From: Burkholderiales bacterium
GTDB lineage: Bacteria > Pseudomonadota > Gammaproteobacteria > Burkholderiales > Burkholderiaceae_D
NCBI GenBank assembly: GCA_005800405.1
Contig: SYFN01000115.1
Span: 1 to 20,343, forward strand
Length of the DNA stretch: 20,343 nucleotides
Direction: 5' to 3'
Under the pieces are notes generated by a model. The model saw only the letters and a list, made by a program, of their open reading frames with translations. It did not search any database and was not told the origin of the DNA. Below are positions 1,440 through 20,343 of the stretch, piece after piece. The position numbers were made by a program, and so were the translations under genes. Positions within the stretch are counted from its first letter, which is position 1. The number at the start of each line of letters is the position of its first letter.

Positions 1440-1469
1440 GCATGGCATAGGCTGATGTTGTGACAGACT

Positions 1470-2465
1470 TCAAGCAAGGACCAAGCGTTCGATGAACAAA
1501 CCCAGACCCACCAGCATCACCATCGCGGAAAGCACCTGAATGACGCGCTGCGCATAGATTTTTTTCTGCAGCCAGAGCAGTGTGGGGAGGGCGATCAGTA
1601 CCGCAACCAACTGACCGGCTTCCACGCCCAGATTGAAATTCAGCAGCGACCACACCTGACTGTCTCTGGGCAGACCAATCTCCTGCAATACCGAAGAAAA
1701 TCCGAAACCATGCACCAGCCCGAACAAAAAGCTGATGGTCCAGCGGCGTGAGATGGCAAAACGGGGAAACAGGTTTTCAAAAGCGACATAGGCAATCGAA
1801 AGAGCGATCACGGCTTCGACCAATACGGAGGGCAGGCTGACCAGGCCCAGTGCAGCGGCGCCCAGTGTCATGCTGTGAGCGAGAGTAAAAGCGGTAATGA
1901 TCTTGATGAGCGATTTCAGAGTGCCGCCGCATAAAATCAGCACCAGCAGGAAGAGCAGATGATCATAGCCGGTGGCGATATGTTCGACGCCCAGTGGAAA
2001 AAAGCTCGCAGCATTGGTGGGAGCCTTTGACGCGGTAGCCGATAGCGGTACGACTGCCTTGGGTGTTGTTGAAGAAAATGCATGTGACTGGCTGCCACCG
2101 CTCCAGGTAAACAGCGCAATGACATGATGGGTTGAGCCGAGTACCTGATCGAGATGATCTTCAACACTGATTTGGTGGTTCGCAGTCGAGCACTGAAAGA
2201 CAATGGCGAGTTCATTGTTCAGATCGGGGGCGCAGGGTTTGCCATCGGCTGTCACGGACAGATGCTGACGCAAAAGTGCGGGCAGGCTGCTCTGGTCTGC
2301 GGAAAAGCTTGCGGTAGGGGTGAAGGTGTAGCGAACGCTCGCATCAGAGAGTGTTACGCTGGCAAAGCCCGTGGCATCTCCGGCATGGGCATGCGCTAAC
2401 GAAGGGATCGCTGTTGCTGCGCACAGCCATAGCCACACCCCGAGCGGGCGCAGCAGGCACGGCAT
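1470..2465 (-). CDS. HupE/UreJ-family membrane protein with signal peptide
   Basis: The product is a 331-residue protein with an N-terminal signal peptide (hydrophobic stretch about 8-20, likely cleavage near AHA around 26-28), a periplasmic domain of about 120 residues, and a C-terminal polytopic domain of the HupE/UreJ type. The family signature is seen as EHIATGYDHLLFLL (about 161-174) and TAFTLAHSMTL (about 191-201), whose His/Asp residues are those proposed to bind nickel or cobalt in HupE proteins. No hydrogenase or urease genes are nearby, so a metal-uptake role is only inferred. The ATG at 2465 overlaps the TGA of the DUF4340 gene by one base (TGATG), which is why I prefer it to the GTG one codon earlier. 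It is the last gene of the minus-strand gld-like operon. Confidence 0.85.
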   Translation of the reverse strand: MPCLLRPLGVWLWLCAATAIPSLAHAHAGDATGFASVTLSDASVRYTFTPTASFSADQSSLPALLRQHLSVTADGKPCAPDLNNELAIVFQCSTANHQISVEDHLDQVLGSTHHVIALFTWSGGSQSHAFSSTTPKAVVPLSATASKAPTNAASFFPLGVEHIATGYDHLLFLLVLILCGGTLKSLIKIITAFTLAHSMTLGAAALGLVSLPSVLVEAVIALSIAYVAFENLFPRFAISRRWTISFLFGLVHGFGFSSVLQEIGLPRDSQVWSLLNFNLGVEAGQLVAVLIALPTLLWLQKKIYAQRVIQVLSAMVMLVGLGLFIERLVLA

Positions 2466-3052
2466 CACGGTTTGGCAGCGCCTGCGATCTTGACCGCGTC
2501 AATCAGCGTCAGCAGGTTCTTGATATGGAAGTCGGGAATCGTCACGATTTCAGACGCGTCAACGGGCAGAACGTAGCGACTCACGCCATCTGTCGCAATG
2601 GTACCAACCGCGTAGCGCGCCAGTGGCTCATCGGCTTTGGGCTGATAGACCAGAATGAACACATCGGGACGGGTGACACCATATTCGTCTTCACCGGCTT
2701 TGAGAGCGATTTTTTGCTCGCGCTGCACGCGACCGAAAGCAATCATCGCCTTGTCAATCACGGCGGCCATTTGCGGATCCGTGCTGTGACCGTGTTCGGC
2801 TTTATTTGCATCGTGCACGCCGTGATAAAACCAGCGACCTTCTGCATCGCGCTCAAAGCGGTGCATGCTGCCTTTGACCATAACTTCTACAGCACCCAGC
2901 TTTTCCATCGGCACTGGCAGCAACCAGGGCACCACGCGCTGACTGGCTGCGCCCAGTTGCTCACTGCGCTGACGCTCTCCAATGAAAATCAGCGCTGCCA
3001 GAACCAGTAAGACGCCCCAGATGACGATCAGCCGCTTGCCGCCCGATTTCAT
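2465..3052 (-). CDS. DUF4340-type membrane-anchored protein
   Basis: This 195-residue protein has one N-terminal membrane anchor (about residues 5-22, RLIVIWGVLLVLAALIF) followed by a soluble, probably periplasmic domain. It matches the DUF4340 pattern by composition and above all by position: DUF4340 proteins regularly follow GldA/GldF/GldG-like genes. The ATG at 3052 overlaps the end of the GldG-like gene as ATGA and has GGAG six bases upstream, so it is chosen over the GTG at 3064. The family function is unknown; an accessory role to the preceding ABC system is inferred from coupling. It ends in overlap with the HupE-like gene. Confidence 0.8.
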   Translation of the reverse strand: MKSGGKRLIVIWGVLLVLAALIFIGERQRSEQLGAASQRVVPWLLPVPMEKLGAVEVMVKGSMHRFERDAEGRWFYHGVHDANKAEHGHSTDPQMAAVIDKAMIAFGRVQREQKIALKAGEDEYGVTRPDVFILVYQPKADEPLARYAVGTIATDGVSRYVLPVDASEIVTIPDFHIKNLLTLIDAVKIAGAAKP

Positions 3053-4680
3053 CGACGTCTCCACCAGACCGCCACACCGACCGCGGCCATTAGCAGCGGA
3101 ATCAGAATGATGGACAAGATGAAGGTACCCTTCATCTGTGTATTTGTCATGCTAACGTAGGGCAGATCGTAGGTGCGTGGTTCAAGGCCGATCAGATTCT
3201 CCCGCGAAGCGAGGAAGTTGACCGCATTCAGGAGTAGCGCACCGTTGCCCAGCACGTGATAAAACGAGTTCGTTGCGAAATCCGAGTCTCCGGAAACGAC
3301 TATACGCGCTTCCTTGCGTGTGGTTGTTTTTTCGGGCGCTTGTTCGCTATCCGCAGTTTCTTCGCCACGCAGCTGCTTGAGCAGCATCTCGCCGGATTTC
3401 ACCGTCTTCGGATTGATACGCGAGGTCACCATCAGAGTTTGTGGTCCGTAGCCATTTTTTGCGGATCTGTGATCGACGCGCATTTTGTCGGCATTGGCGA
3501 AGCTTTTCTGGGACGAATTTACCAAGGGTCTGACCGACACGCCCGGTACCGGATCTTTGGTCGGCCCGAGCGGCCGCACACCAGGGAAGAAGGAGAGCGG
3601 CAGCTTGTTGGTGATCTCATGCCGGTTGTAGTCGGTGACTGCCGGTGTTGATGGATCAGCCCAGAAATGGCTGGCTTCATCGATAACCATGCCGGAACCG
3701 AGTTCAATACCGAATTTCCTGATGATGTCCTCAAGACCCGTTTTGACAAAAGGGTCGATCATGAACATCGCATTGCCACCTTCATCAAGATAGCGATCAA
3801 TACTGCGCAGTTCAGCCGCGAGCAGCGGTGATTGCGATCCCGCGACGATCAATACGGCACACTGCGACAGCGTGGCATCCGATTTGAGCAACGAGACTTT
3901 TTCGACAACATAATTCATTGACTCCAGACCACCGCGTGCTTTTGCCATGCCGTGTCGTTCATGCTGGACGAACTTCGTTTCCAGACCGTGAGAATGACCG
4001 GCATCACCTTCCATATGGTCATGCGACTCCAGACTGAACGGATCCGGCTCACCATGGCCGTCAACGAAACAGGCGACTTGCTGCTTGGCTTGAGTAATGC
4101 GCAGAATGCCATTGGCAATGTCGGTTTCGGTGGGACCATTGACGGTCAGCTTTCGTCCTTCACTTTCGTACAGGGCAGTTCCTGCGAACTCGACGCCGCG
4201 CAGTTTGGCCTGTGCTGGATTGACCATGGGATCGAAGAATTCAACCGAGATTTTGTCGTTCTGTGCTGCGAACAATTCATACAGCTCAACGGTCTCGCGC
4301 ATGCCACGATCATGAAAAAACGCGATACGCACCGGCTTGTCGATGGACTGCATCATTTTCACGGTCTGTGGCGAGAGCGAATACTCGCGATTTGCGGTCA
4401 AATCCATGCGCACTGGGTGAAGGGCTGACAACCAAGCTGCCGCAACCAATACGCCAATCAGCCCGACGGTGGTGAGCAGCAGTTCACGCCGATTCTCTCT
4501 GAACAGTGGTCCAATGTCGTCACGCAAAGAGAACAGGGCAAAGCCCGACAAAAGGAGACCCGCAAGCAGCAACAGGTTCGTGACCACTTGCGAGTTGACC
4601 GAGAGTGAACTGGCAATCATCGAAGCGGCCAGTAGCATGAGCCCCGCGATCAGGATCAGTCCGGAACGAAATGAGTTCAT
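3049..4680 (-). CDS. GldG-like ABC transporter auxiliary protein
   Basis: The product (543 residues) has three hydrophobic segments near the N-terminus (about 7-25, 33-52 and 70-86), a long extracytoplasmic region, and a final membrane helix (about 519-539) ending in WWRRR. This is the layout of GldG-type auxiliary components (ABC_transp_aux). The segment beginning RMDLTANREYSLSPQTVKMM (about 91-110) and the later DGHGEPDPFSLESHDH stretch are characteristic of the family. In Bacteroidetes GldA/F/G are linked to gliding, but homologues in Proteobacteria are common and their role is not defined. A His/Asp-rich insert (SHDHMEGDAGHSHGLETKF region) is notable and could bind metal. It starts two bases after the permease stop and overlaps the DUF4340 gene by four bases. 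Confidence 0.85.
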   Translation of the reverse strand: MNSFRSGLILIAGLMLLAASMIASSLSVNSQVVTNLLLLAGLLLSGFALFSLRDDIGPLFRENRRELLLTTVGLIGVLVAAAWLSALHPVRMDLTANREYSLSPQTVKMMQSIDKPVRIAFFHDRGMRETVELYELFAAQNDKISVEFFDPMVNPAQAKLRGVEFAGTALYESEGRKLTVNGPTETDIANGILRITQAKQQVACFVDGHGEPDPFSLESHDHMEGDAGHSHGLETKFVQHERHGMAKARGGLESMNYVVEKVSLLKSDATLSQCAVLIVAGSQSPLLAAELRSIDRYLDEGGNAMFMIDPFVKTGLEDIIRKFGIELGSGMVIDEASHFWADPSTPAVTDYNRHEITNKLPLSFFPGVRPLGPTKDPVPGVSVRPLVNSSQKSFANADKMRVDHRSAKNGYGPQTLMVTSRINPKTVKSGEMLLKQLRGEETADSEQAPEKTTTRKEARIVVSGDSDFATNSFYHVLGNGALLLNAVNFLASRENLIGLEPRTYDLPYVSMTNTQMKGTFILSIILIPLLMAAVGVAVWWRRR

Positions 4681-4681
4681 G

Positions 4682-5398
4682 TCAGCGACGCCATTGCAAG
4701 TAACTGTTGTTCAGGGTAAGCGCGATAGCGGTCACCACGAGGAAATACACGATAGCTTCTGACCGCAGCAGACCGTGAATGAAATCTGCGTAGTGCAGGG
4801 CAAAGGACAAATGTGCGAGCAGATCGCGCAGCAGCAGCGATGATTGCAGGCTCTGCAAATGGCCAACGAACCAGAAGCCTAGCAGCGTGGGAATGGTGAT
4901 CAGTGCAGCCACAATCTGATTTTCAGTCAGCGCGGAAAAAAACTGGCCGATACCGATGCAGGCCATACCTAGCAAAATGAAACCAATATAACCGGCCAGA
5001 ATATTCAAGGTCTGCGGATTGCCGTACAAATACAGCGGTATCAAATTGATACAGGATGCTGTGGTCATCAGTAACAGCATGCTGACCGCGCCCAGGTATT
5101 TGCCAAGCACGACCTGCCAGGTGCGTAATGGCAGTGTCATCAAAAGTTCCATGGTTCGCCCGTTGTACTCGGCAGAGAACAGTCGCATTGTCAGTACAGG
5201 GCTTAATGTGATTAACAAGATGCCCATATTCTGCAGCGTCTGATCCATCGTGCCCACGCCGGTCAGGAAGATGTTATACGTGAAAAAATATCCGGTACCG
5301 AGCAGGAATACGGTGATCACGAAGTACGCAATCGGTGAGCGGAAATAGGTGAGCATTTCCTTGTCATACACGGCCTTGAGGCCGATCCAGGCGTTCAT
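4682..5398 (-). CDS. ABC-2 type permease, GldF-like
   Basis: A 238-residue polytopic membrane protein with about six hydrophobic segments, for example about 23-45, 65-80, 105-125, 135-155, 165-185 and 215-232. It has the charged cytoplasmic loop FSAEYNGRTMELLMTLPLRT (about 74-93) typical of ABC-2 permeases of the NosY/GldF type. It should form the membrane part of the ABC system with the ATPase encoded just upstream, whose stop codon it overlaps as ATGA. The start at 5398 is fixed by that overlap and by the usual N-terminus (YDKEMLTYFRSPIAYF). Substrate or mechanical role unknown. Confidence 0.87.
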   Translation of the reverse strand: MNAWIGLKAVYDKEMLTYFRSPIAYFVITVFLLGTGYFFTYNIFLTGVGTMDQTLQNMGILLITLSPVLTMRLFSAEYNGRTMELLMTLPLRTWQVVLGKYLGAVSMLLLMTTASCINLIPLYLYGNPQTLNILAGYIGFILLGMACIGIGQFFSALTENQIVAALITIPTLLGFWFVGHLQSLQSSLLLRDLLAHLSFALHYADFIHGLLRSEAIVYFLVVTAIALTLNNSYLQWRR

Positions 5399-6363
5399 GA
5401 AGAGGTTCCGCTGCTGTTGTCGTTGGCGTGGGTGTGCCCGATGTAGCGCAGGAACACATTTTCCAGTGTCGGTTGTTGACGCTCAAGACGGAATAGTTCG
5501 CCGCAGGCGATCACGGCACGCGCAATGCGCGATTCAACTTGCTCTTGAGCGTCAACCTGACAATCAATGCTGTAGAGCCCGACGCGAGAAGCAACCGGCC
5601 GCAGACTGACCGCAGTGACGCCATCGGTGTCCGTGAGTGCGCGCTTGAGTTGATCCGCATCGCCCGACGCCTCGAGCAACACGGAACTGGTTTCCTCGGC
5701 CGCGCGTTGCAGACCCTGCGGCGAACCGGTTGCGAGGATACGGCCGTGATTGATGATCGCGACACGCTGACAGATCAGCGTGACTTCCGGAAGAATGTGT
5801 GTGGAGAGCAGAACCGCATGATCCCTGCCGACTTCACGGATTACTTCGCGGGTCTCTTGTATCTGGCCTGGATCGAGACCCGCGGTCGGTTCGTCGAGCA
5901 GCAGCACCTCAGGATTGCCGAGCAATGCCTGCGCGAGTCCCACTCGCTGACGAAAACCCTTGGAGAGTTTGTAGATTTCCTTGCGCGTGACGCTCTCGAG
6001 GCGGCAGGCGTGTATGACCCGCTCGAGTTGAGATGGACGTTGCGCGGCGGGTATGCGCTTGGCGCGTGCGACGAAAGTCAGATAGTCCGTGACATCCAGC
6101 ACGTCGTAGAGTGGAGGCTGTTCGGGCAGATAGCCGATGTGCTCCGCAGCCAGCTGGTTCTCGCTCGCCATATCAAAGCCAGCCACGCGCACCGTGCCAC
6201 TGGTGGCTGCGGTAAAGCCGGCAATCATGCGCATGGTGGTCGTTTTACCCGCGCCATTGGGCCCGAGAAAGCCGACGATTTCGCCTTTGCTTACATTGAA
6301 CGAAATGTCGTGGAGTATGGTTTTCGATCCATACCGCTTGGTGACGTGCTCAATGTCAATCAT
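5395..6363 (-). CDS. ABC transporter ATP-binding protein, GldA-like
   Basis: This 322-residue ATPase is the first gene of the five-gene minus-strand operon. Walker A GPNGAGKTT lies at about 34-42, the signature LSKGFRQR at 133-140, Walker B VLLLDEP at 153-159 and the switch His in LLSTH at 189. The C-terminal extension of about 100 residues (after about 220) is the DUF4162-like region found in ABC-2 exporter ATPases. It is expected to pair with the adjacent permease on the inner face of the membrane. No strong Shine-Dalgarno is seen before the ATG at 6363, but the N-terminus MIDIEHVTKRYG is standard. The next minus-strand gene upstream is insulated by a terminator, so its promoter probably lies in 6364-6442. 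Confidence 0.92.
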   Translation of the reverse strand: MIDIEHVTKRYGSKTILHDISFNVSKGEIVGFLGPNGAGKTTTMRMIAGFTAATSGTVRVAGFDMASENQLAAEHIGYLPEQPPLYDVLDVTDYLTFVARAKRIPAAQRPSQLERVIHACRLESVTRKEIYKLSKGFRQRVGLAQALLGNPEVLLLDEPTAGLDPGQIQETREVIREVGRDHAVLLSTHILPEVTLICQRVAIINHGRILATGSPQGLQRAAEETSSVLLEASGDADQLKRALTDTDGVTAVSLRPVASRVGLYSIDCQVDAQEQVESRIARAVIACGELFRLERQQPTLENVFLRYIGHTHANDNSSGTSS

Positions 6364-6442
6364 GAAAACTCACAGACTCCGTTTTGCCGCTTTGTTCAAA
6401 GACGAGTGACTTGTGCTAAAAGCCACTGAAATGGCTGCTCGT

Positions 6443-6469
6443 AAAAAAGCCCCCGTTGCGGGGGCTTTT
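6443..6469 (-). terminator. rho-independent terminator of the lactonase-like gene
   Basis: Read on the minus strand, a perfect 10-bp stem AAAAGCCCCC/GGGGGCTTTT with a 5-base loop (6445-6454 pairing with 6460-6469) ends in a run of six T. It lies 21 bases after the stop of the 6490-7353 gene. The stem is A-rich on its other side, so it may work weakly in both directions. It proves that the TAA at 6490-6492 is a true end of gene. Confidence 0.92.
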
Positions 6470-6489
6470 CTCACGGGGCATAAACCCGA

Positions 6490-7353
6490 TTACTTGTGCC
6501 AGCGATCGCCCATGGTAGCAAACTGACCGGCGTCATGTGACATCAGAATCTTCGCGCCTTCCAGGTCCCGCATCATCTTGATCTTGGTGACGGAGTCGAC
6601 GTACGCCTGCTGGCTGTAGTTCAGACCAGCGACGTATCCATCCAGGTTTTCCTGCATCCAGACCGCATCTTGGGTGATCACAACGGTGCCGGTTTTGGCC
6701 AGCTTGATCTTCATCGACTGGTGGCCCAGCGTGTGACCCGGTGTCGGAAAAATTTTCACGGTACCGTCGCCGAACAGATCAAGTTCGCCGTCGATTTCGT
6801 AGTAGGTGTAGTCACGTGCAGCGGCGATGTCACCCAGCACAAAGGTGCCATTCACAGCGCGGCCCTGGAACTTCTCTGGCCACCAGCCCTGATACAGCTC
6901 TTTCTTCTGCAGCACGTGGATCGCCTTCGGGAACATCGCGATGTTGCCGGCATGATCCAGGTGGGTGTGGGAGGTCACAACGACTTTGATGTCATCGGTC
7001 GACATGCCGAGCTTTTTCAGTTGCATGTCGATGACATCGGAACGCTTCTGGCTTGGCTTCAAGAAATCGCAGGATCCTGCAGCCCAGTAGGCTTTGCAGT
7101 TTTCTGCGCTGTCGGAGATGGCAACATTGTTACCTGTATCAAACACGACGTTGCCCTTGGGATGCTTGAGCACCCACATGGACACCGGGATGGTGATGTC
7201 TCTGGCCGTTGGGAAGGTCGGAATCAGACCCTGAATATTGAACGGGCCGAACATGCCGCTGGTTGCCCAGTACAGTTCTTGAGATTGCGCGGACGGTGCT
7301 GTGCTGATGCAAAGTGTCGCGAGAAGCGACGCCAGCAGGCCGGTCTTTTTCAT
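6490..7353 (-). CDS. Periplasmic MBL-fold hydrolase, N-acyl homoserine lactonase-like
   Basis: A 287-residue metallo-beta-lactamase-fold enzyme. The zinc ligands are visible: HTHLDH (129-134), His in TPGHTLGH (207), Asp in TQDA (229) and His in MSHDAGQ (273). The FDTGNN segment (71-76) and overall order resemble the AHL lactonase (AiiA/AttM-like) branch, which opens lactone rings; the true substrate could be another lactone or ester. Residues 1 to about 24 form a signal peptide (MKKTGLLASLLATLCISTAPSAQS), so the mature enzyme should be periplasmic, unlike classical AiiA. The ATG at 7353 is chosen because AGGAG stands 8 bases upstream and it begins the signal peptide; a longer open frame to 7479 adds an implausible Arg-rich leader. 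Transcribed divergently from the Liv operon and ended by a strong terminator. Confidence 0.88.
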   Translation of the reverse strand: MKKTGLLASLLATLCISTAPSAQSQELYWATSGMFGPFNIQGLIPTFPTARDITIPVSMWVLKHPKGNVVFDTGNNVAISDSAENCKAYWAAGSCDFLKPSQKRSDVIDMQLKKLGMSTDDIKVVVTSHTHLDHAGNIAMFPKAIHVLQKKELYQGWWPEKFQGRAVNGTFVLGDIAAARDYTYYEIDGELDLFGDGTVKIFPTPGHTLGHQSMKIKLAKTGTVVITQDAVWMQENLDGYVAGLNYSQQAYVDSVTKIKMMRDLEGAKILMSHDAGQFATMGDRWHK

Positions 7354-7801
7354 GTGTCTTCTCCTAGTGGTTGTCGACAGCCGCCCTGATCCTGGGCCGC
7401 CACTACACCTGCCAGCAAAATGCGTGGGCATCATGCTTTTTGTTTCTTTTGTTATCAATAGCAACACCCGGCTTTCCACGAAGGCATTACCTTGATGGGA
7501 TCTTGCCCGGGTCTTTTCTTCATGTCAACAGCAAGTTAACATTGGCCTTTAAAAAAACTCATGGATCCGTCTTTATCTGAGTGTTGAAAATGCTGCGCTG
7601 CGGCAATCGGTGGATTTGTGCCAGCGTTCGCCAATTTAAAATGCAGACTTTAAAAAACGCGGCTTGTCTGGGGAGCACAGCTCAGTCAGACTCCGACTGG
7701 CGGTGCCATGAGGAAAATAAGGGTAAAACGGGGGCGATGTGCAAGGGATCGTGTGCCGGAGAGTCACCCAGTTCAACCGCCTTGTTCGTCGGAGACCACA
7801 C
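7354..7801. other. 448-bp divergent intergenic region, probably regulatory
   Basis: The region lies between the starts of the lactonase-like gene (minus) and the Liv binding protein (plus) and must hold both promoters. Its middle (about 7430-7660) is clearly more AT-rich than the flanks, with several A and T runs. A weak plus-strand promoter can be drawn at TTGTGC (7616-7621) and TAAAAT (7637-7642) with a short 15-base spacer. GGAG at 7790-7793 is the ribosome binding site of the binding protein gene. No open frame inside it has credible coding features. Confidence 0.5.
7449..7464. promoter_or_regulatory. Imperfect palindrome, candidate operator
   Basis: TTGTTATCAATAGCAA is a 7-2-7 inverted repeat with a single mismatch, in the AT-rich middle of the divergent region, about 96 bases upstream of the lactonase-like start. 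Such a site could bind a regulator of either transcript. No regulator gene is adjacent, so this is only a pattern. Confidence 0.25.
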
Positions 7802-9097
7802 ATGAAGATGTACCAATTTTTTCGCCTGCTGCTGGGCGCAATCGCGACCTTGGCGTTGTCAACTGCAGTTGCGCAAAACAAGCCCGCCGAACTCAAGGTG
7901 GGAATCACCACCTTTCTCTCGGGACCGGCGTCTGTTTTCGGCGTGCCAGGAAAAGCAGCCGCCGAACTGTACATCGAGCAGATTAATGCGGCCGGCGGGA
8001 TTGACGGTGTAAAAATCGTCCCGACCTTTATTGATGAGGGCATCGGCCCGGACAAGCTGCTCTCCGAGTACCGGCGGGTGGTGCAGGAGGGTGGGACGCG
8101 GGTGATGCTGTCGGCCATTTCGAGCGGCAACTGCAATACGCTTGCGCCTGTGGCTGAAGATCTGAAGGTACTCAACATCATGTGGGATTGCGGCACTGAA
8201 AAGGTGCTGGAAGACCGTCGTTACCGCTATGTGACCCGCACGCAGGCCAACGCGACAACAGAGATGGTTGCGTCGGTGCTCTATCTGCTGCGAGTTAAAC
8301 CGGATATAAAGTCCATCGCCGTGGTCAACCAGGATTACGCTTGGGGCCGTGATTCGTGGGAGCTGTTCCGCAACACGCTGCTGGCGCTCAAGCCAGATGT
8401 GAAAATCGTGGCCGAGCTATTCCCGAAATTTGGTGCAACTGATTATTCAACCGAAATCAGCCGTCTGCAGGCACTGCGCCCTGAGGTCATTCTCTCGACG
8501 GCCTGGGGCGGTGATCTCGACACCCTGATTCGGCAATCCGCACAGCGCGGTTTGTTCAAGAGTTCGCAATTCATTTTGCCACTGGCAGAGAGCTCACTCG
8601 AGCGCGTGGGTAACTCGATGCCCGATGGCGTGATTGTGGGTGCACGCGGCGATCACTATTTTCTGCATCCGCAGAATCCAGGTAACCCCAAGTTGAGAGG
8701 CTTCGTCAGGAAATTCCGGGAGAAGACTGGTAACTATCCGATCTACCCGGTGTATCACATGGTTCAAGCACTTGACGGTCTGGTCGCCGGTTACCAGAAA
8801 GCGATGAAAGCAAATAAGGGACAGTGGCCATCGACCGAGCAGGTTGCGGATGCGATGCGTGGGCTGGAATTCCGGGGCCTGACCAATACGGTCAAGATTC
8901 GTGAGGATGGTCAGGGCCTCGAAGATCAACTGCTCGGTATCACGCGCAAAACACCGGCTTATGATTTTCCGACGTTGGAGAAAATCGTGATTTATCCAGC
9001 AGAGCTGATCACAACACCGGTCGGCAAAAAATCGCCGGAGTGGGTCAAGACGCTCAAGCCGGAACTCATTAATCACCCGAACTTCAAGCAGTATTGA
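7802..9097 (+). CDS. Liv-type ABC transporter periplasmic binding protein
   Basis: This 431-residue protein is the substrate-binding component of a branched-chain-amino-acid-type (HAAT) ABC importer. Residues 1 to about 24 are a signal peptide ending in AVA before QNKPAELKVG. The mature N-terminus has the family pattern KVGITTFLSGPASVFGVPGK and AAELYIEQINAAGGIDG (about 32-71), followed by the two-lobe periplasmic-binding fold; VVNQDYAWGRDSWELFR (about 178-194) is the usual second-lobe element. The ATG at 7802 is chosen over an in-frame start at 7739 because it begins the signal peptide and has GGAG 8 bases before it. Many members bind aromatic acids, amides or urea rather than amino acids, and the downstream dehydrogenases fit a non-amino-acid substrate, but this cannot be decided here. 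Confidence 0.92.
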   Translation: MKMYQFFRLLLGAIATLALSTAVAQNKPAELKVGITTFLSGPASVFGVPGKAAAELYIEQINAAGGIDGVKIVPTFIDEGIGPDKLLSEYRRVVQEGGTRVMLSAISSGNCNTLAPVAEDLKVLNIMWDCGTEKVLEDRRYRYVTRTQANATTEMVASVLYLLRVKPDIKSIAVVNQDYAWGRDSWELFRNTLLALKPDVKIVAELFPKFGATDYSTEISRLQALRPEVILSTAWGGDLDTLIRQSAQRGLFKSSQFILPLAESSLERVGNSMPDGVIVGARGDHYFLHPQNPGNPKLRGFVRKFREKTGNYPIYPVYHMVQALDGLVAGYQKAMKANKGQWPSTEQVADAMRGLEFRGLTNTVKIREDGQGLEDQLLGITRKTPAYDFPTLEKIVIYPAELITTPVGKKSPEWVKTLKPELINHPNFKQY

Positions 9098-16249: not shown

Positions 16250-16579
16250 CTATTTTTGCGCGGTAACCACCGGCTTCGGTTTGCCCTGAGCATCGGGCAA
16301 ACGATATTTGGTGCGACGATCACCCATCAGATCGTGCAAGTCACGAATACTCAACTCAGTCACCTCATGCATGCGAATTAACAGAGATGCACCGACAGGC
16401 AGCGTGCGGTGACGTATTTTGCTGATCACAGGGGGCGCGACCTCGAGTGCCCGGGATAGCGCTACATCGTTCTTGAGTTTCATACGCTCACGCAAGGTAT
16501 CGAGCAGATGGTTCGGGTTATAGGTGGATTGCGACGCTAGTGAATGAGAAGATGATGGTAGTCGTTGCTGATGTTCCAT
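16250..16579 (-). CDS. Small Cro/C1-like helix-turn-helix protein
   Basis: A 109-residue protein. Residues about 37-62 (NDVALSRALEVAPPVISKIR) read as a helix-turn-helix of the XRE/Cro type: helix, short turn with V-A-P-P, then a recognition helix VISKIRHR. The rest of the fold, LLIRMHEVTELSIRDLHDLM (about 67-86), matches the later helices of such domains. The basic C-terminus and Ser-rich N-terminus look disordered. ATG at 16579 has GAGGAAC upstream. A good promoter is seen at 16631-16658, with ACATCG repeats beside it that could be its own binding sites. It may control the protease locus upstream of it, but it has its own promoter and could act elsewhere. Confidence 0.72.
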   Translation of the reverse strand: MEHQQRLPSSSHSLASQSTYNPNHLLDTLRERMKLKNDVALSRALEVAPPVISKIRHRTLPVGASLLIRMHEVTELSIRDLHDLMGDRRTKYRLPDAQGKPKPVVTAQK

Positions 16580-16630
16580 GATGTTCCTCGGTCGGTCGGG
16601 ATATAAAAGCGCAATGATTCGATTGCGTAC

Positions 16631-16658
16631 ATGATATGACCGTCTTGTTGGTGGACAA
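16631..16658 (-). promoter_or_regulatory. Sigma-70-like promoter of the HTH gene
   Basis: On the minus strand TTGTCC (16658-16653) and TATCAT (16636-16631) are separated by 16 bases, about 50 bases before the start codon at 16579. Five of six bases match in -10 and four of six in -35. Confidence 0.5.
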
Positions 16659-16666
16659 GTTCCGAA

Positions 16667-16722
16667 AAAACATCGCTACATCGTATTTTTCATGACCACA
16701 TGGTTGCGCCATGCGATGTTTT
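16667..16722. repeat. ACATCG direct and inverted repeats, candidate operator cluster
   Basis: AAAACATCG (16667-16675) and its inverted copy CGATGTTTT (16714-16722) stand 38 bases apart. A further direct ACATCG lies at 16678-16683. The cluster begins 9 bases upstream of the -35 element of the HTH promoter and extends toward the end of the protease gene. Possible binding sites for the HTH protein; function inferred only from position. Confidence 0.4.
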
Positions 16723-16753
16723 GCGCACCGCATGACGGGTCAATGTGTTTCAG

Positions 16754-18736
16754 TCACCACCTACGGTAAGAGAAGGCGTTAGGCATATTGTTTTGCATCG
16801 TCATTGCCTGTTGCACGGCCAGTAGGTTGGCGTAGGGATCATAAGTACCGAATCCCAGGTTGGCACTCTGCGGCATCATCTGCGGCAGTTCGCGATAGGC
16901 ATTGGCCAGTGCCTGCATGATTGCCGGTGAGCCCATCAATCCTCCCAGTGCCCCACCGATCGTTTTACTCATGTCAGCCACGGGCTGTTGATGCGCAGGC
17001 ATCAAGCCCACTGCCCGTGGTGCATCCGGCAGACCGAAACCAGTGCGCCGCTGGTCGCCCACCATCACAGGGCGACAGGAAGCTTTGATAATCTGGAACA
17101 GACGATCGACGCGTTGTGCATTACGCATGCGAATTGCGCCCTGAAAATCAGGGTGATGCGCCAGTACCAGTGCCGCCAGTCCTGTGACGTGCGGCGCGGC
17201 CATGGAGGTGCCATCCCAGGCGGCGTAATTGTTGTCAGGCACGGAGGAGATAATGGCGACACCGTGTGCGTACACGGCAATCTTAGGGCCGAAGCAGCTG
17301 AAACGCGCGGCATAGAAGCCATTAGTATCCATCTGCGGTGTCAGACTTTGGGTGAGATAGCTATCGGCTGGGAATTCATGCAGGCGGCCAATCGCAGCGA
17401 CGGCGAGTACATGCTGCGAGGCGGCCGGATACTGAACCGCACCGCCCGAATTACCCGCAGCGACGATGCACACGACACCCGCTTGACGCGCACGCTGCAG
17501 CTGCTGCTCCAGCGCTTCAGAGGGTTCAGTGCCGCCCAGACTCAGATTAACGACATCGATCTGTTTCTCCAGACAGTATTCGAGCGCATCAATGAGCTGA
17601 CTGATTTACCCTCCGGGGAAGAGTTTGCAGGCATGTATTTCTGCATCGGGCACGAAGCCACGTACACCCACGGCCGAATCCATTCCGGCGATTACGCCAG
17701 CACAGTGCGACCCATGCGAGAGCGTATCCACCGTCCAGGTGCTGGTATCGTGCTGCTTGTTGACGATGTCGTTACCGTGCGTGATGTTGGTGAGGTCTTG
17801 ATGCTGATTGGCGGCACCTGAGTCAACGATGGCAATCCGTATGCCCTGACCACGAAAATGAGGGGGCAGCTGATCGAGTCGCATGGCTTTTTGTCCCCAA
17901 CTGAGTTGCTGCTGTTTGGGGAAATTGGCCAGCGAGGGCCAGTCAGATAAAGCACGCAGCTTGACGACATTGATTTCTTGATCGCGGATGTCGGGCTGCT
18001 CCTGATAAAAACTCCAGTAGTCCATGCGCGGCTTGACGTAGAGGCGGCGTACGCTGGAGGTTGTTTCACCAAACAGCGTGAGCCTGACTTTGCCATTGGC
18101 ATCGGTGACGCCACGCGCTGGCAGCAGACTGCCGAACAGATATACTGCGGCGCCCTCAATCGGCTTGTCCTGAGCCATCACCAGAAATTCAGCGGTCAAT
18201 GCGGTGCCGGTCATGGGAAGGCTGTAGTTCATCAGTTCGGCCTGCGGATAATTCACATCCAGCAGTTGCAGGCTCTGATCGCGCTCGACTATTAGCTGTC
18301 CCTGCGATTGCATGGCCAAGGCGGCGGCTTTTTCTTCTGCCATGCGTGCGACCAGTACGCCAGCACCACCCGGCACGCCGGCTGCCAGTGCACCAATGAC
18401 GTTCTTGGGGCCGACTCGATCAATGACCTCAATATCGGGGCCGTCACGCAGCGCCTGCTCAACGACTGAAAACTGCAGGGGTGCGATACCCATCATCTGC
18501 AGGGTCGGATTGTGTCGGGGTGCGACGAGAAACTGGCGTTTGCGTTTTTTAAGTTCGCGCTGTCCGGACTTGCTCTCTGTGGTTGCGCTTTCACGCGGGG
18601 CTGCAGCTTCCTTGGTTGCGGCAGTGGTTTCCTTTGCAGACGATGAGGTGTCTTTCACAGCCACGGAGGTACTGCTACCGGTAGCCGGAGTGGGCTCAGA
18701 GGCGCCGCTACGACCGGATTCGGATTTGGATGACAT
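16754..18736 (-). pseudogene. S8 subtilisin-family serine protease, split by an in-frame TAA
   Basis: The gene would encode about 660 residues. Order: a Ser/Thr/Ala/Glu-rich disordered stretch (1-60) with no signal peptide; a propeptide-like domain (about 66-161); a beta-rich domain with a DANGKVRLTLFGE segment resembling carboxypeptidase-regulatory folds (about 180-240); then the subtilase domain. Catalytic Asp305 (IVDSG), His341 (SHGSHCAG), oxyanion Asn429 (AAGNSGG) and Ser511 (GTSMAAPHVTG) are all present. Codon 377, between His and Ser, is TAA (17608-17606). Translation in the same frame continues as ISQLIDALEYCLEKQIDVVN and LSLGG, exactly what a subtilase has there, so one substitution (CAA or AAA to TAA) explains the break; it is not a frameshift. 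The truncated 376-residue product lacks the nucleophile. ATG at 18736 has AAAGGA upstream and is preferred to an in-frame start at 18778. It sits 28 bases after the small propeptide-like gene. Confidence 0.85.
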
Positions 18737-18764
18737 GGTGATCCTTTCATGGAACAGCAAAAAT

Positions 18765-19028
18765 TCAGACGTCGCCAAACAGGGACAAGGGTTTGTCGGG
18801 TTCTATCTTGAGTGTGCCCTCGGCTTGAAAGTCTTGCTGCAGGGCGGCAGTCTTTTTGTGCGCCATCTCATACACAATGGTGTGAGGTGCATCCTTGGGC
18901 CCGATCGTTTCGATCAGATCAAGTTCAGGATCGTTATGCGCATCATCGATAAAGCGACGCAAACGACGGTTGTCGTTTGCAATTATCAGATAGCGACCGC
19001 GACCGGGTCCTCCCTGAATAGTGGACAT
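18765..19028 (-). CDS. Small stand-alone protein homologous to the protease propeptide-like domain
   Basis: This 87-residue protein has no signal peptide or membrane segment. From residue 12 onward it aligns with residues about 69-161 of the neighbouring subtilase: RYLIIANDN against QFLVAPRHN, LDLIETIGPKD against IEVIDRVGPKN, and MAHKKTAAL against MAEEKAAAL, with the final LSLFGDV against LQLLDV. Subtilase propeptides act as folding helpers and tight inhibitors, and free propeptide-like inhibitors are known in other systems. I infer that this one binds the subtilase or replaces its propeptide. ATG at 19028 has AGGAAA about 6 bases before it and is preferred to the upstream in-frame start at 19070. 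It lies 91 bases after the Gly/Gln-rich gene and 28 before the protease gene. Confidence 0.75.
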   Translation of the reverse strand: MSTIQGGPGRGRYLIIANDNRRLRRFIDDAHNDPELDLIETIGPKDAPHTIVYEMAHKKTAALQQDFQAEGTLKIEPDKPLSLFGDV

Positions 19029-19119
19029 ACGGTTTCCTGTCTGGCGTGAGGCTTGTAGCGAAATGAACACGATGGTTGTACGCGACAGGCTGACCCATCG
19101 CGTAAGTAACTACATCGAT

Positions 19120-19977
19120 TCAGTGCACGGTGGTCTGACCAGCGCCGTATCCCGGTTGCTGCCCATAGCCTTTCTGTTGCTGTCCATACGCTTGCTTTCC
19201 ATAGACTGGTTGCCCGCTCCCCTGATAGGGCGTGTTTTGCTGTAGCGCCTGCGACCATGCCTGCTGCTGAGTTGGGTCCATCTGGAAAGGCAAGAGCCGA
19301 CCCAGTTGCCCCGCAGCGCCTCCGATCTGACTGCCGATGTTGGAATGACCAAACAGACCGCCCATAGCGCTACCGAGTGGCTGCCCAATATGGCCGAGCA
19401 GATTGCCAAAGAAGCCTTGCGGCGCGAGGGACTGCCCTGGTTGTCCCTGCTGCGCCTGTTGGGCTTGCAGTTGCTGAATCTGCTGGAGTTGTTGCAGTTG
19501 CTGTTGTAATTGTTGTTGCTGGGCGAGTTGTGCATAGGCCTGCGCAACGGGATCCTGGCCTATTTGACTGCCAATGCCGGAATGACCAAAGATGCCGCCA
19601 ATCGCGCCACCCAGCGGCTGACCGATCTGGCCGAGCAGATTGCCGAACCATCCTTGTGGTGCAAGTTGTTGACCCATCGAGTTCTGCTGTTCCTGTTGCT
19701 GCTGTAGTTATTGCAGCTGCTGGAGCTGGTGTAGTTGTTGCTGTGCCTGCTGCTGTGCGTAGGCTTGCATCATGGGATCCACTTGGAATGGCAGAAGTCC
19801 GCCACCGATGTCACCCGCCATTTGGCCGATCTGGCTACCCAGCCCGGCATTACCAAGCAGGCCACCGATGCCACGTCCTATCAGACCGCCAAGGGGAGCA
19901 CCAAACAATCCACCGAACAGGCCTTGCGGTGCCAGTTGTTGCCCGCTGTAGCCACCCATTTGCGAAATACCATTCAT
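19120..19977 (-). pseudogene. Gly/Gln-rich triple-repeat protein, split by an in-frame TAA
   Basis: Read through, the gene gives about 285 residues: an 89-residue first part, a TAA (19710-19708), ten Gln-rich codons (LQQQQEQQNS) in the same frame, and 185 more residues. Three units share the plan QxLAPQGxFGxLxG, PLGxxxGxxxG, GSQIG, LLPFQxDP, followed by a Gln-rich linker. The C-terminus is Gly/Gln/Tyr-rich. No signal peptide is seen; the Gly-spaced hydrophobic stretches look like glycine zippers. The first start (ATG 19977) has a strong AGGAG; the second possible start (19677) has no good site at proper spacing, so the second part is best seen as the cut-off remainder, or it may be made by reinitiation 30 bases after the stop. 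The codon before TAA is CAA and its surroundings are Gln codons, so CAA to TAA is the simplest origin. I do not recognise the family. First gene of the minus-strand protease locus. Confidence 0.72.
19255..19941 (-). repeat. Three tandem units within the Gly/Gln-rich gene
   Basis: Unit 1 runs about 19941-19756, unit 2 about 19671-19528 and unit 3 about 19434-19255. Units 1 and 3 keep the whole plan; unit 2 lacks the dozen residues between GSQIG and the DP motif (GSQIGQDPVAQAY against GSQIGQMAGDIGGGLLPFQV then DPMMQAY). The copies are much more alike in protein than in DNA, which points to old duplication under selection for protein sequence. Gln-rich linkers of CAG/CAA codons separate the units. 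Confidence 0.75.
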
Positions 19978-20068
19978 GTCGTCTCCTGTGTGTTGATAGA
20001 AAACGGCGCGATAAAAAAAGTGCACGCCGCTTCGATCTATCTTTGTCGGCTGCGACGGGATTGGCAAA

Positions 20069-20083
20069 TGAATCGGCGATTCA
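20069..20083. promoter_or_regulatory. Perfect palindrome TGAATCG-G-CGATTCA, candidate operator
   Basis: A perfect 7-1-7 inverted repeat about 92-106 bases upstream of the Gly/Gln-rich start codon. A possible -35 (TTGCCA on the minus strand, 20066-20061) lies directly beside it, with a poor -10 17 bases further. The place fits an activator or repressor site. Confidence 0.4.
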
Positions 20084-20084
20084 C

Positions 20085-20098
20085 TTGAGACCTCTCAA
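20085..20098. promoter_or_regulatory. Perfect palindrome TTGAGA-CC-TCTCAA, candidate operator
   Basis: A perfect 6-2-6 inverted repeat one base away from the preceding palindrome and unrelated to it in sequence. Two perfect palindromes side by side upstream of a three-gene locus suggest a regulatory region. No T run follows either of them, so they are not terminators. Confidence 0.4.
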
Positions 20099-20124
20099 AC
20101 GCATGAGTGAAAGGCATACGACCA

Positions 20125-20160
20125 AGAAAAAACCGTGCAGGCTGGAAGCGCTGCACGGTT
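20125..20160 (-). terminator. rho-independent terminator of the lactate-permease-like gene
   Basis: On the minus strand AACCGTGCAG (20160-20151 side) pairs with CTGCACGGTT (20140-20131 side), a perfect 10-bp stem with a 10-base loop, followed by a T run with TTTTTT ending near 20125. It begins 24 bases after the TAG of the permease fragment and separates it from the protease locus. Confidence 0.88.
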
Positions 20161-20183
20161 GCGGATTTGAATGCTGGCGTGAT

Positions 20184-20343
20184 CTACTTCACGAGCAATG
20201 TGAACGGATGTACATAGGCTTGCAACGTGACGAGAATACCCACCAGCGCAGCCAGGGCAATGGAATGAAAGAACACGTAACGCAGAATTTCACCTTCGTG
20301 ACCGTACCACTTGGTTGCTGTTGATGCGACCACGATGGATTAC
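20184..20343 (-). pseudogene. lldP: C-terminus of an L-lactate permease-like protein (partial, in-frame TAA at the edge)
   Basis: Minus-strand translation from 20339 to the TAG at 20186-20184 gives 51 residues starting [20 protein letters not shown] and including a hydrophobic segment then LVTLQAYV. This follows the C-terminus of LldP/LctP lactate permeases, where [20 protein letters not shown], a final membrane helix and TTLQAYV stand (family sequence from memory). The codon before SIV is TAA (20342-20340), just where the family has a conserved Gln, so CAA to TAA is again the simplest reading. Only one base of the gene remains beyond this, so the rest of the gene, and whether it is otherwise intact, cannot be seen. 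A terminator follows. Confidence 0.65.

What the first reader, a model, noticed from the sequence alone, without database searches (positions are those of the whole stretch)
16754..20343. Three adjacent minus-strand genes each carry an in-frame TAA, all explainable as CAA to TAA
Seen: codon 377 of the subtilase (17608-17606), the Gln-rich linker of the repeat protein (19710-19708) and the lactate-permease fragment (20342-20340) each have TAA with coding-quality sequence continuing in the same frame. In the linker and the permease the expected residue is Gln; in the protease Gln or Lys fits. No such event occurs in the other 15 or so genes over 16 kb, and TAA is a true stop in the lactonase gene because a terminator follows at once. 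Clustering of three like changes within 2.8 kb is unexpected by chance. Explanations: local decay with C-to-T changes, sequence or assembly errors, strain polymorphism, or readthrough/suppression at these sites.
Basis: partly seen in the sequence, partly recalled or inferred. Interest (0 to 1): 0.75.

Follow-up and report, generated by a model that had tools for sequence, protein, structure and literature searches.

The report
Decaying protease genes in draft genome
Two neighbouring genes in the draft genome of an environmental bacterium carry ordinary gene-breaking stop codons in a protease locus that looks to be decaying, and a third stop sits at the very edge of the assembled piece, so nothing here calls for an unusual genetic code.

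Summary
The three in-frame TAAs are in the sequence, and the three sister loci carry Gln at each. The window is one whole contig of a 71%-complete, 284-contig MAG. In a sample of that MAG, 10 of 149 genes shared with sister G006 hold clear internal stops, against 0 of 151 the other way (stops sorted by eye). They are TAA, TAG and TGA, at Gln, Trp, Tyr and Lys, so the effect is not confined to TAA, Gln or these 2.8 kb. TAA still ends normal genes. The subtilase is losing constraint: 12 of 21 window-branch changes (11 of 20 without the stop) hit columns invariant in 12 other species, against 5 of 53 on sister branches. Changes in nine other window genes are as conservative as in sisters, which speaks against general sequence error. 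The permease differs: no other amino-acid change in the 253 codons held, and its stop is the contig's last complete codon, so it is an edge artefact or very recent. Verdict: ordinary decay of a protease locus in a MAG with many broken genes, plus one unresolved contig-end stop. Read support could not be checked.

The parts
16754..18736 (-). S8 subtilase gene, broken by TAA at 17608-17606 (codon 377 of 660)
   Evidence: Pfam Peptidase_S8 on both halves, profile 1-89 before and 148-262 after the stop; intact with Gln in G006, G002, G018
17606..17608 (-). in-frame TAA, subtilase
18765..19028 (-). small gene (87 aa) between repeat protein and subtilase, resembling part of the subtilase N-terminal region; open, but with 9 nonsynonymous to 3 synonymous window-branch changes
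   Evidence: no Pfam family
19120..19977 (-). Gln-rich repeat protein gene, broken by TAA at 19710-19708; shorter than the sister proteins
   Evidence: no Pfam family on either piece
19708..19710 (-). in-frame TAA, Gln-rich linker
20184..20342 (-). 3' end of an L-lactate permease gene with TAA as the last complete codon of the contig; codons 1-203 lie on contig C65 and the middle is absent from the bin
   Evidence: (Lactate_perm 19.4 bits, below its cut-off of 27)
20340..20342 (-). in-frame TAA at the contig edge, permease

Best explanation
The TAAs in the subtilase and in the repeat protein are ordinary nonsense mutations in a protease locus that has recently come under relaxed selection on this one lineage. 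They are part of a wider load of nonsense and frameshift lesions in this MAG. Each arose by C-to-T change, the commonest kind of change on this lineage, and truncates its product; the subtilase product would stop before the part of the domain that holds the catalytic serine (motif position recalled from the S8 family). The permease TAA is a separate event, an assembly-end artefact or a very recent allele. Shown: presence of the stops, Gln in relatives, loss of constraint in the subtilase, lesions elsewhere. Inferred: that the lesions are present in living cells and that the products are inactive.
For: Sisters intact with Gln. 10 of 149 genes with clear internal stops in the MAG against 0 of 151 in G006 (Fisher p 0.0008). 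10 of 12 single-step lesions are C>T or G>A, as the lineage's own spectrum predicts (0.68) and a flat spectrum does not (0.24). Subtilase: 12 of 21 window-branch changes at invariant columns (11 of 20 without the stop) against 5 of 53 on three sister branches (p 4e-5). Changes in subtilase plus small gene are more radical than on sister branches (27 changes, p 0.002) while those in nine other window genes are not (50 changes, p 0.49). Operon N/S on the window branch 43/56 against 57/254 in the rest of the window (p 1.6e-6) and 14/53 on the G006 branch (p 0.003). 4 of 20 other same-genus genomes gave no subtilase match, so the gene may be dispensable.
Against: The subtilase alone is not clearly faster than in G006 by N/S (22/43 against 10/32, p 0.29) and its pairwise dN/dS (0.068) is average for the sample. 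The other window genes also have a slightly raised N/S against G006 (57/254 against 25/180, p 0.066), as a low error rate would give. The repeat protein's changes are not more radical than in sisters (10 changes, mean BLOSUM62 0.50) and its alignment is uncertain. No reads and no second genome of the species were seen.
Confidence: 0.72

Rival explanations
1. Consensus or assembly errors, or minority alleles from mixed strains, in a fragmented MAG made most of the stops, including all three in the window.
For: 284 contigs, 71% complete; five tRNA genes in the whole MAG against 22 in 1.26 Mb of G006; broken genes are otherwise mostly constrained; the permease stop is at the contig edge in a gene without other amino-acid change, and another stop lies about 30 nt from the end of contig C45.
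Against: Window-branch amino-acid changes in nine other genes are as conservative as in sisters; lesions follow the natural C>T/G>A-rich spectrum, not a flat one; one gene has two stops and two have a stop and a frameshift; contig ends show no general excess of differences (local alignment trims ends). Deamination-type damage would also give C>T, so spectrum alone does not exclude error.
Confidence: 0.2
2. The stops are read through or suppressed: a UAA suppressor, a reassigned code, or regulated readthrough.
For: All three sites are Gln in relatives; sequence after the permease stop is fully constrained; CAA>TAA is more common than expected among lesions (5 of 12 against 0.13, p 0.013), three of the five being the ones first noticed.
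Against: TAA ends 31 of 109 co-terminal orthologues, 21 of them TAA in both genomes; two release-factor (PCRF-domain) genes are present without internal stops; lesions elsewhere are TAG and TGA too and replace Trp, Tyr and Lys; the stops are not shared by the three sisters; the five tRNAs found carry no stop-reading anticodon, though most tRNA genes are unassembled.
Confidence: 0.03
3. A local burst of C-to-T mutation struck 16.7-20.3 kb.
For: Three C-to-T stops within 2.8 kb; on the plus strand G>A is the commonest window-branch change at 16250-20343 (42 of 130, with C>T 23).
Against: Window-branch changes per kb there (28, 41, 29, 27 in bins 16-19) lie within the range of the other well-covered bins (24 to 41), and C>T plus G>A are 65 of 130 there against 156 of 346 in the rest.
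Confidence: 0.03

Closest known systems
Bacterial pseudogenes formed by nonsense and frameshift mutation
   Same: Stops absent from orthologues, lost constraint in the subtilase, several genes broken, two with a stop and a frameshift
   Different: Nothing in kind; the share of broken genes in the sample (10 of 149) is high against G006 (0 of 151)
In-frame stops kept within prokaryotic genes, suggested as readthrough (PMC7918605; abstract and passages seen)
   Same: In-frame stops in genes with dN/dS below 1
   Different: That study relied on stops shared by orthologues of two or more species; here the three sisters have Gln
S8 subtilase family (Peptidase_S8, PF00082)
   Same: Both halves match the profile in order; 8 of the 9 relatives whose sequences I fetched reach the position and have Gln there
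   Different: Interrupted between the two halves

Membership tests
Nonsense pseudogene (subtilase) | Intact orthologues in relatives | tested here: met
   G006, G002, G018 full length with Gln
Nonsense pseudogene (subtilase) | Loss of constraint on the broken lineage | tested here: met
   11 of 20 missense changes at invariant columns against 5 of 53 on sister branches; more radical changes. N/S and pairwise dN/dS alone are not significant
Nonsense pseudogene (repeat protein) | Loss of constraint on the broken lineage | tested here: inconclusive
   N/S 12/10 against 2/14 on the G006 branch, but changes not more radical and repeat alignment uncertain
Nonsense pseudogene (permease) | Loss of constraint on the broken lineage | tested here: not met
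   19 synonymous, 0 nonsynonymous besides the stop in 253 codons
Nonsense pseudogene (all three) | Stop supported by reads or a second genome | not testable with these tools
   No reads held; best subtilase match among 5.8 billion proteins 91% identical over 79% of the query
Reassigned code (TAA = Gln) | TAA no longer ends genes | tested here: not met
   31 of 109 co-terminal orthologues end in TAA
Reassigned code or UAA suppressor | tRNA with an anticodon reading UAA | tested here: inconclusive
   Five tRNAs found in the MAG, none such; most tRNA genes missing from the assembly
Conserved readthrough | Stop shared by orthologues of several species | tested here: not met
   Gln in three of three sisters at each site

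The most novel reading that the evidence does not exclude
The lineage has become broadly tolerant of in-frame stops (leaky termination at all three codons), so nonsense lesions build up in genes that stay under purifying selection and are still made in full by readthrough.
Probability: 0.03. Interest if true: 0.75.

Novelty: new member of a known kind. Interest (0 to 1): 0.13.

Why it matters
Mostly as a caution: three like stops look striking inside 20 kb but much less so once the genome's own rate of broken genes is measured. It also flags a MAG in which 10 of 149 compared genes are interrupted, worth a read-level check before its gene losses are believed.

Tried and rejected
Ab initio scan for in-frame stops: a first codon model was too weak; a second also listed many ordinary gene ends, so counts were taken from orthologue comparison. 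One search listed 25 stops for G006 genes in the MAG; I kept 11 (in 10 genes) and dropped 14 as upstream of the likely start, within the last 10 codons, in poorly matching or low-complexity stretches, or in a frame left by a frameshift. Of the 6 stops listed the other way I dropped all 6 on the same grounds. The sorting was by eye, and I knew which genome was which. Frameshifts listed: 2 in the MAG, 1 in G006. One search does not include the window's stops at 19710 and 20342. One search counted 9 broken genes; the tenth (on contig C45) stayed among its 140 intact ones. The first invariant-column script recovered too few proteins and was redone. The permease range was out of frame; one search replaces it. 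For the small gene the invariant-column test was spoilt by wrong sequences among the outgroups and is not used. Local hypermutation was set aside. Whether G017 lost the operon could not be told: its contig ends before it. Paper searches found no paper, 62 found one (listing only), 59 gave the one I looked into (abstract and passages).

Full report
What was checked. From the ATG at 18736 the subtilase stop is codon 377 of 660; the repeat-protein stop is codon 90 from 19977; the permease stop is bases 2 to 4 from the contig end. So the window lineage changed. Of nine further subtilase relatives fetched from the protein search, eight reach the position and have Gln.

Where the window comes from. 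It is the whole of contig C74 of a MAG of 2.16 Mb in 284 contigs, 71% complete. The permease's codons 1-203 lie at the end of contig C65 and its middle is missing from the bin. Five tRNA genes were found in the whole MAG, none in the window or in 54 other sampled contigs (two of these read all N), against 22 in 1.26 Mb of G006. The assembly is thus incomplete in a non-random way.

Are the stops special to these genes? No. I compared 55 contigs of the MAG (435 kb, 430 kb readable; the window included) with 82 stretches of G006 (1.26 Mb); 169 kb matched. Of 149 G006 genes found in the MAG, 10 have clear internal stops, one of them two stops, and two also have a frameshift. Of 151 MAG genes found in G006 none has a clear internal stop; one frameshift-like break was listed (stops sorted by eye; Fisher p 0.0008). 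Besides the subtilase, the broken genes match, by their G006 orthologues, a Cu/Zn superoxide dismutase, a solute-binding protein, a DUF6844 protein, an S33 hydrolase, an aspartate decarboxylase, a competence (ComEC-type) protein and a CesT-family protein; one has no Pfam family and one, on contig C45, was not searched. From the ab initio scan, a PhoX gene, a DUF3422 gene and a pyridine nucleotide oxidoreductase each have two halves that match successive parts of one Pfam profile on either side of a TAG.

What kind of lesions? With the window's other two stops there are 13 lesions, 12 of them one clear step from the sister codon: 5 CAA>TAA, 2 CAG>TAG, 3 at TGG, 1 TAT>TAA, 1 AAA>TAA. Ten of 12 are C>T or G>A; the lineage's own spectrum predicts 0.68 and a flat one 0.24, giving p 0.21 and 2.6e-5. 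CAA>TAA is commoner than expected (5 of 12 against 0.13, p 0.013), but three of the five are those that drew attention. Three lesions somewhere within 2740 bp has simulated probability 0.06 to 0.14 for 9 to 12 lesions in 169 kb (the triple is in the count). The repeat protein is so rich in CAA and CAG that 0.86 of nonsense changes there are expected at these codons.

Decay or error? If random errors filled the sequence, window-branch amino-acid changes would be radical everywhere. In nine other window genes 50 changes have mean BLOSUM62 0.48, like the sister branches (p 0.49); in the subtilase and the small gene beside it 27 changes average -0.30 (p 0.002 against the other branches). In the subtilase 12 of 21 window-branch changes (the stop among them) fall on columns invariant in 12 outgroup species, where 257 of 610 columns are invariant; on three sister branches 5 of 53 do (p 4e-5). 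Four of them lie within 12 residues (485-496). In the PrpD-like gene at the other end of the window the figures are 2 of 7 and 2 of 34. Operon N/S on the window branch is 43/56, against 57/254 in the rest of the window and 14/53 on the G006 branch. So the protease locus is losing constraint. Against this: the subtilase's N/S alone is not significantly above G006's (p 0.29), the rest of the window also has slightly raised N/S (p 0.066), and its pairwise dN/dS is average (0.068). The nine broken genes keep low dN/dS (median 0.108 against 0.069 in 140 others, p 0.012), so the lesions are recent or, in part, errors. No subtilase match was found in 4 of 20 other same-genus genomes (G005, G007, G010, G017; completeness 82 to 95%), so the gene may be dispensable.

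The permease is different. In 253 codons on two contigs its window branch has 19 synonymous and no nonsynonymous changes besides the stop, and the stop is the contig's last complete codon. An edge artefact and a very recent allele are both open. One other kept stop lies about 30 nt from an end, on contig C45, but contig ends show no general excess of amino-acid differences.

Recoding. TAA ends 31 of 109 co-terminal orthologues in the MAG, 21 of them TAA in both genomes. Two PCRF-domain release-factor genes are present without internal stops. Lesions at all three stop codons and four kinds of residue do not fit one suppressor. None of five tRNAs found reads a stop, though most tRNA genes are not in the assembly. 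The stops are not shared with the sisters, whereas the published case for readthrough rests on shared stops (PMC7918605, abstract and passages).

Verdict. The most likely reading is ordinary decay of a protease locus in a MAG with many broken genes, plus one unresolved stop at a contig edge.

Noticed in passing
18765-19028 (-) and 17609-18736 (-): The small protein beside the subtilase resembles part of the subtilase's own N-terminal region (19 of 62 identical, single-comparison E 3e-6), which suggests a free-standing propeptide-like (I9-type, name recalled) partner.
   Followed up: partly
19120-19977 (-): The window's repeat protein is shorter than its sisters' (frame of 285 residues counted through the stop, against sister frames of about 400), as if one repeat unit were lost or collapsed in assembly.
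   Followed up: no
window 1442-7447: This stretch has no counterpart at the locus in G002 but aligns in G006 and G018.
   Followed up: no
G000 as a whole: Five tRNA genes were found in the 2.16 Mb MAG, against 22 in 1.26 Mb of G006.
   Followed up: partly
L109 (contig C44 of G000), 1773-8306: An S33 hydrolase gene with two in-frame stops and a DUF6844 gene with a stop and a frameshift lie on one contig.
   Followed up: partly
L100 7218-9488 (-), L107 1921-3315 (+), L066 1269-2564 (+): PhoX, DUF3422 and pyridine nucleotide oxidoreductase genes of the same MAG are each split by a TAG.
   Followed up: partly
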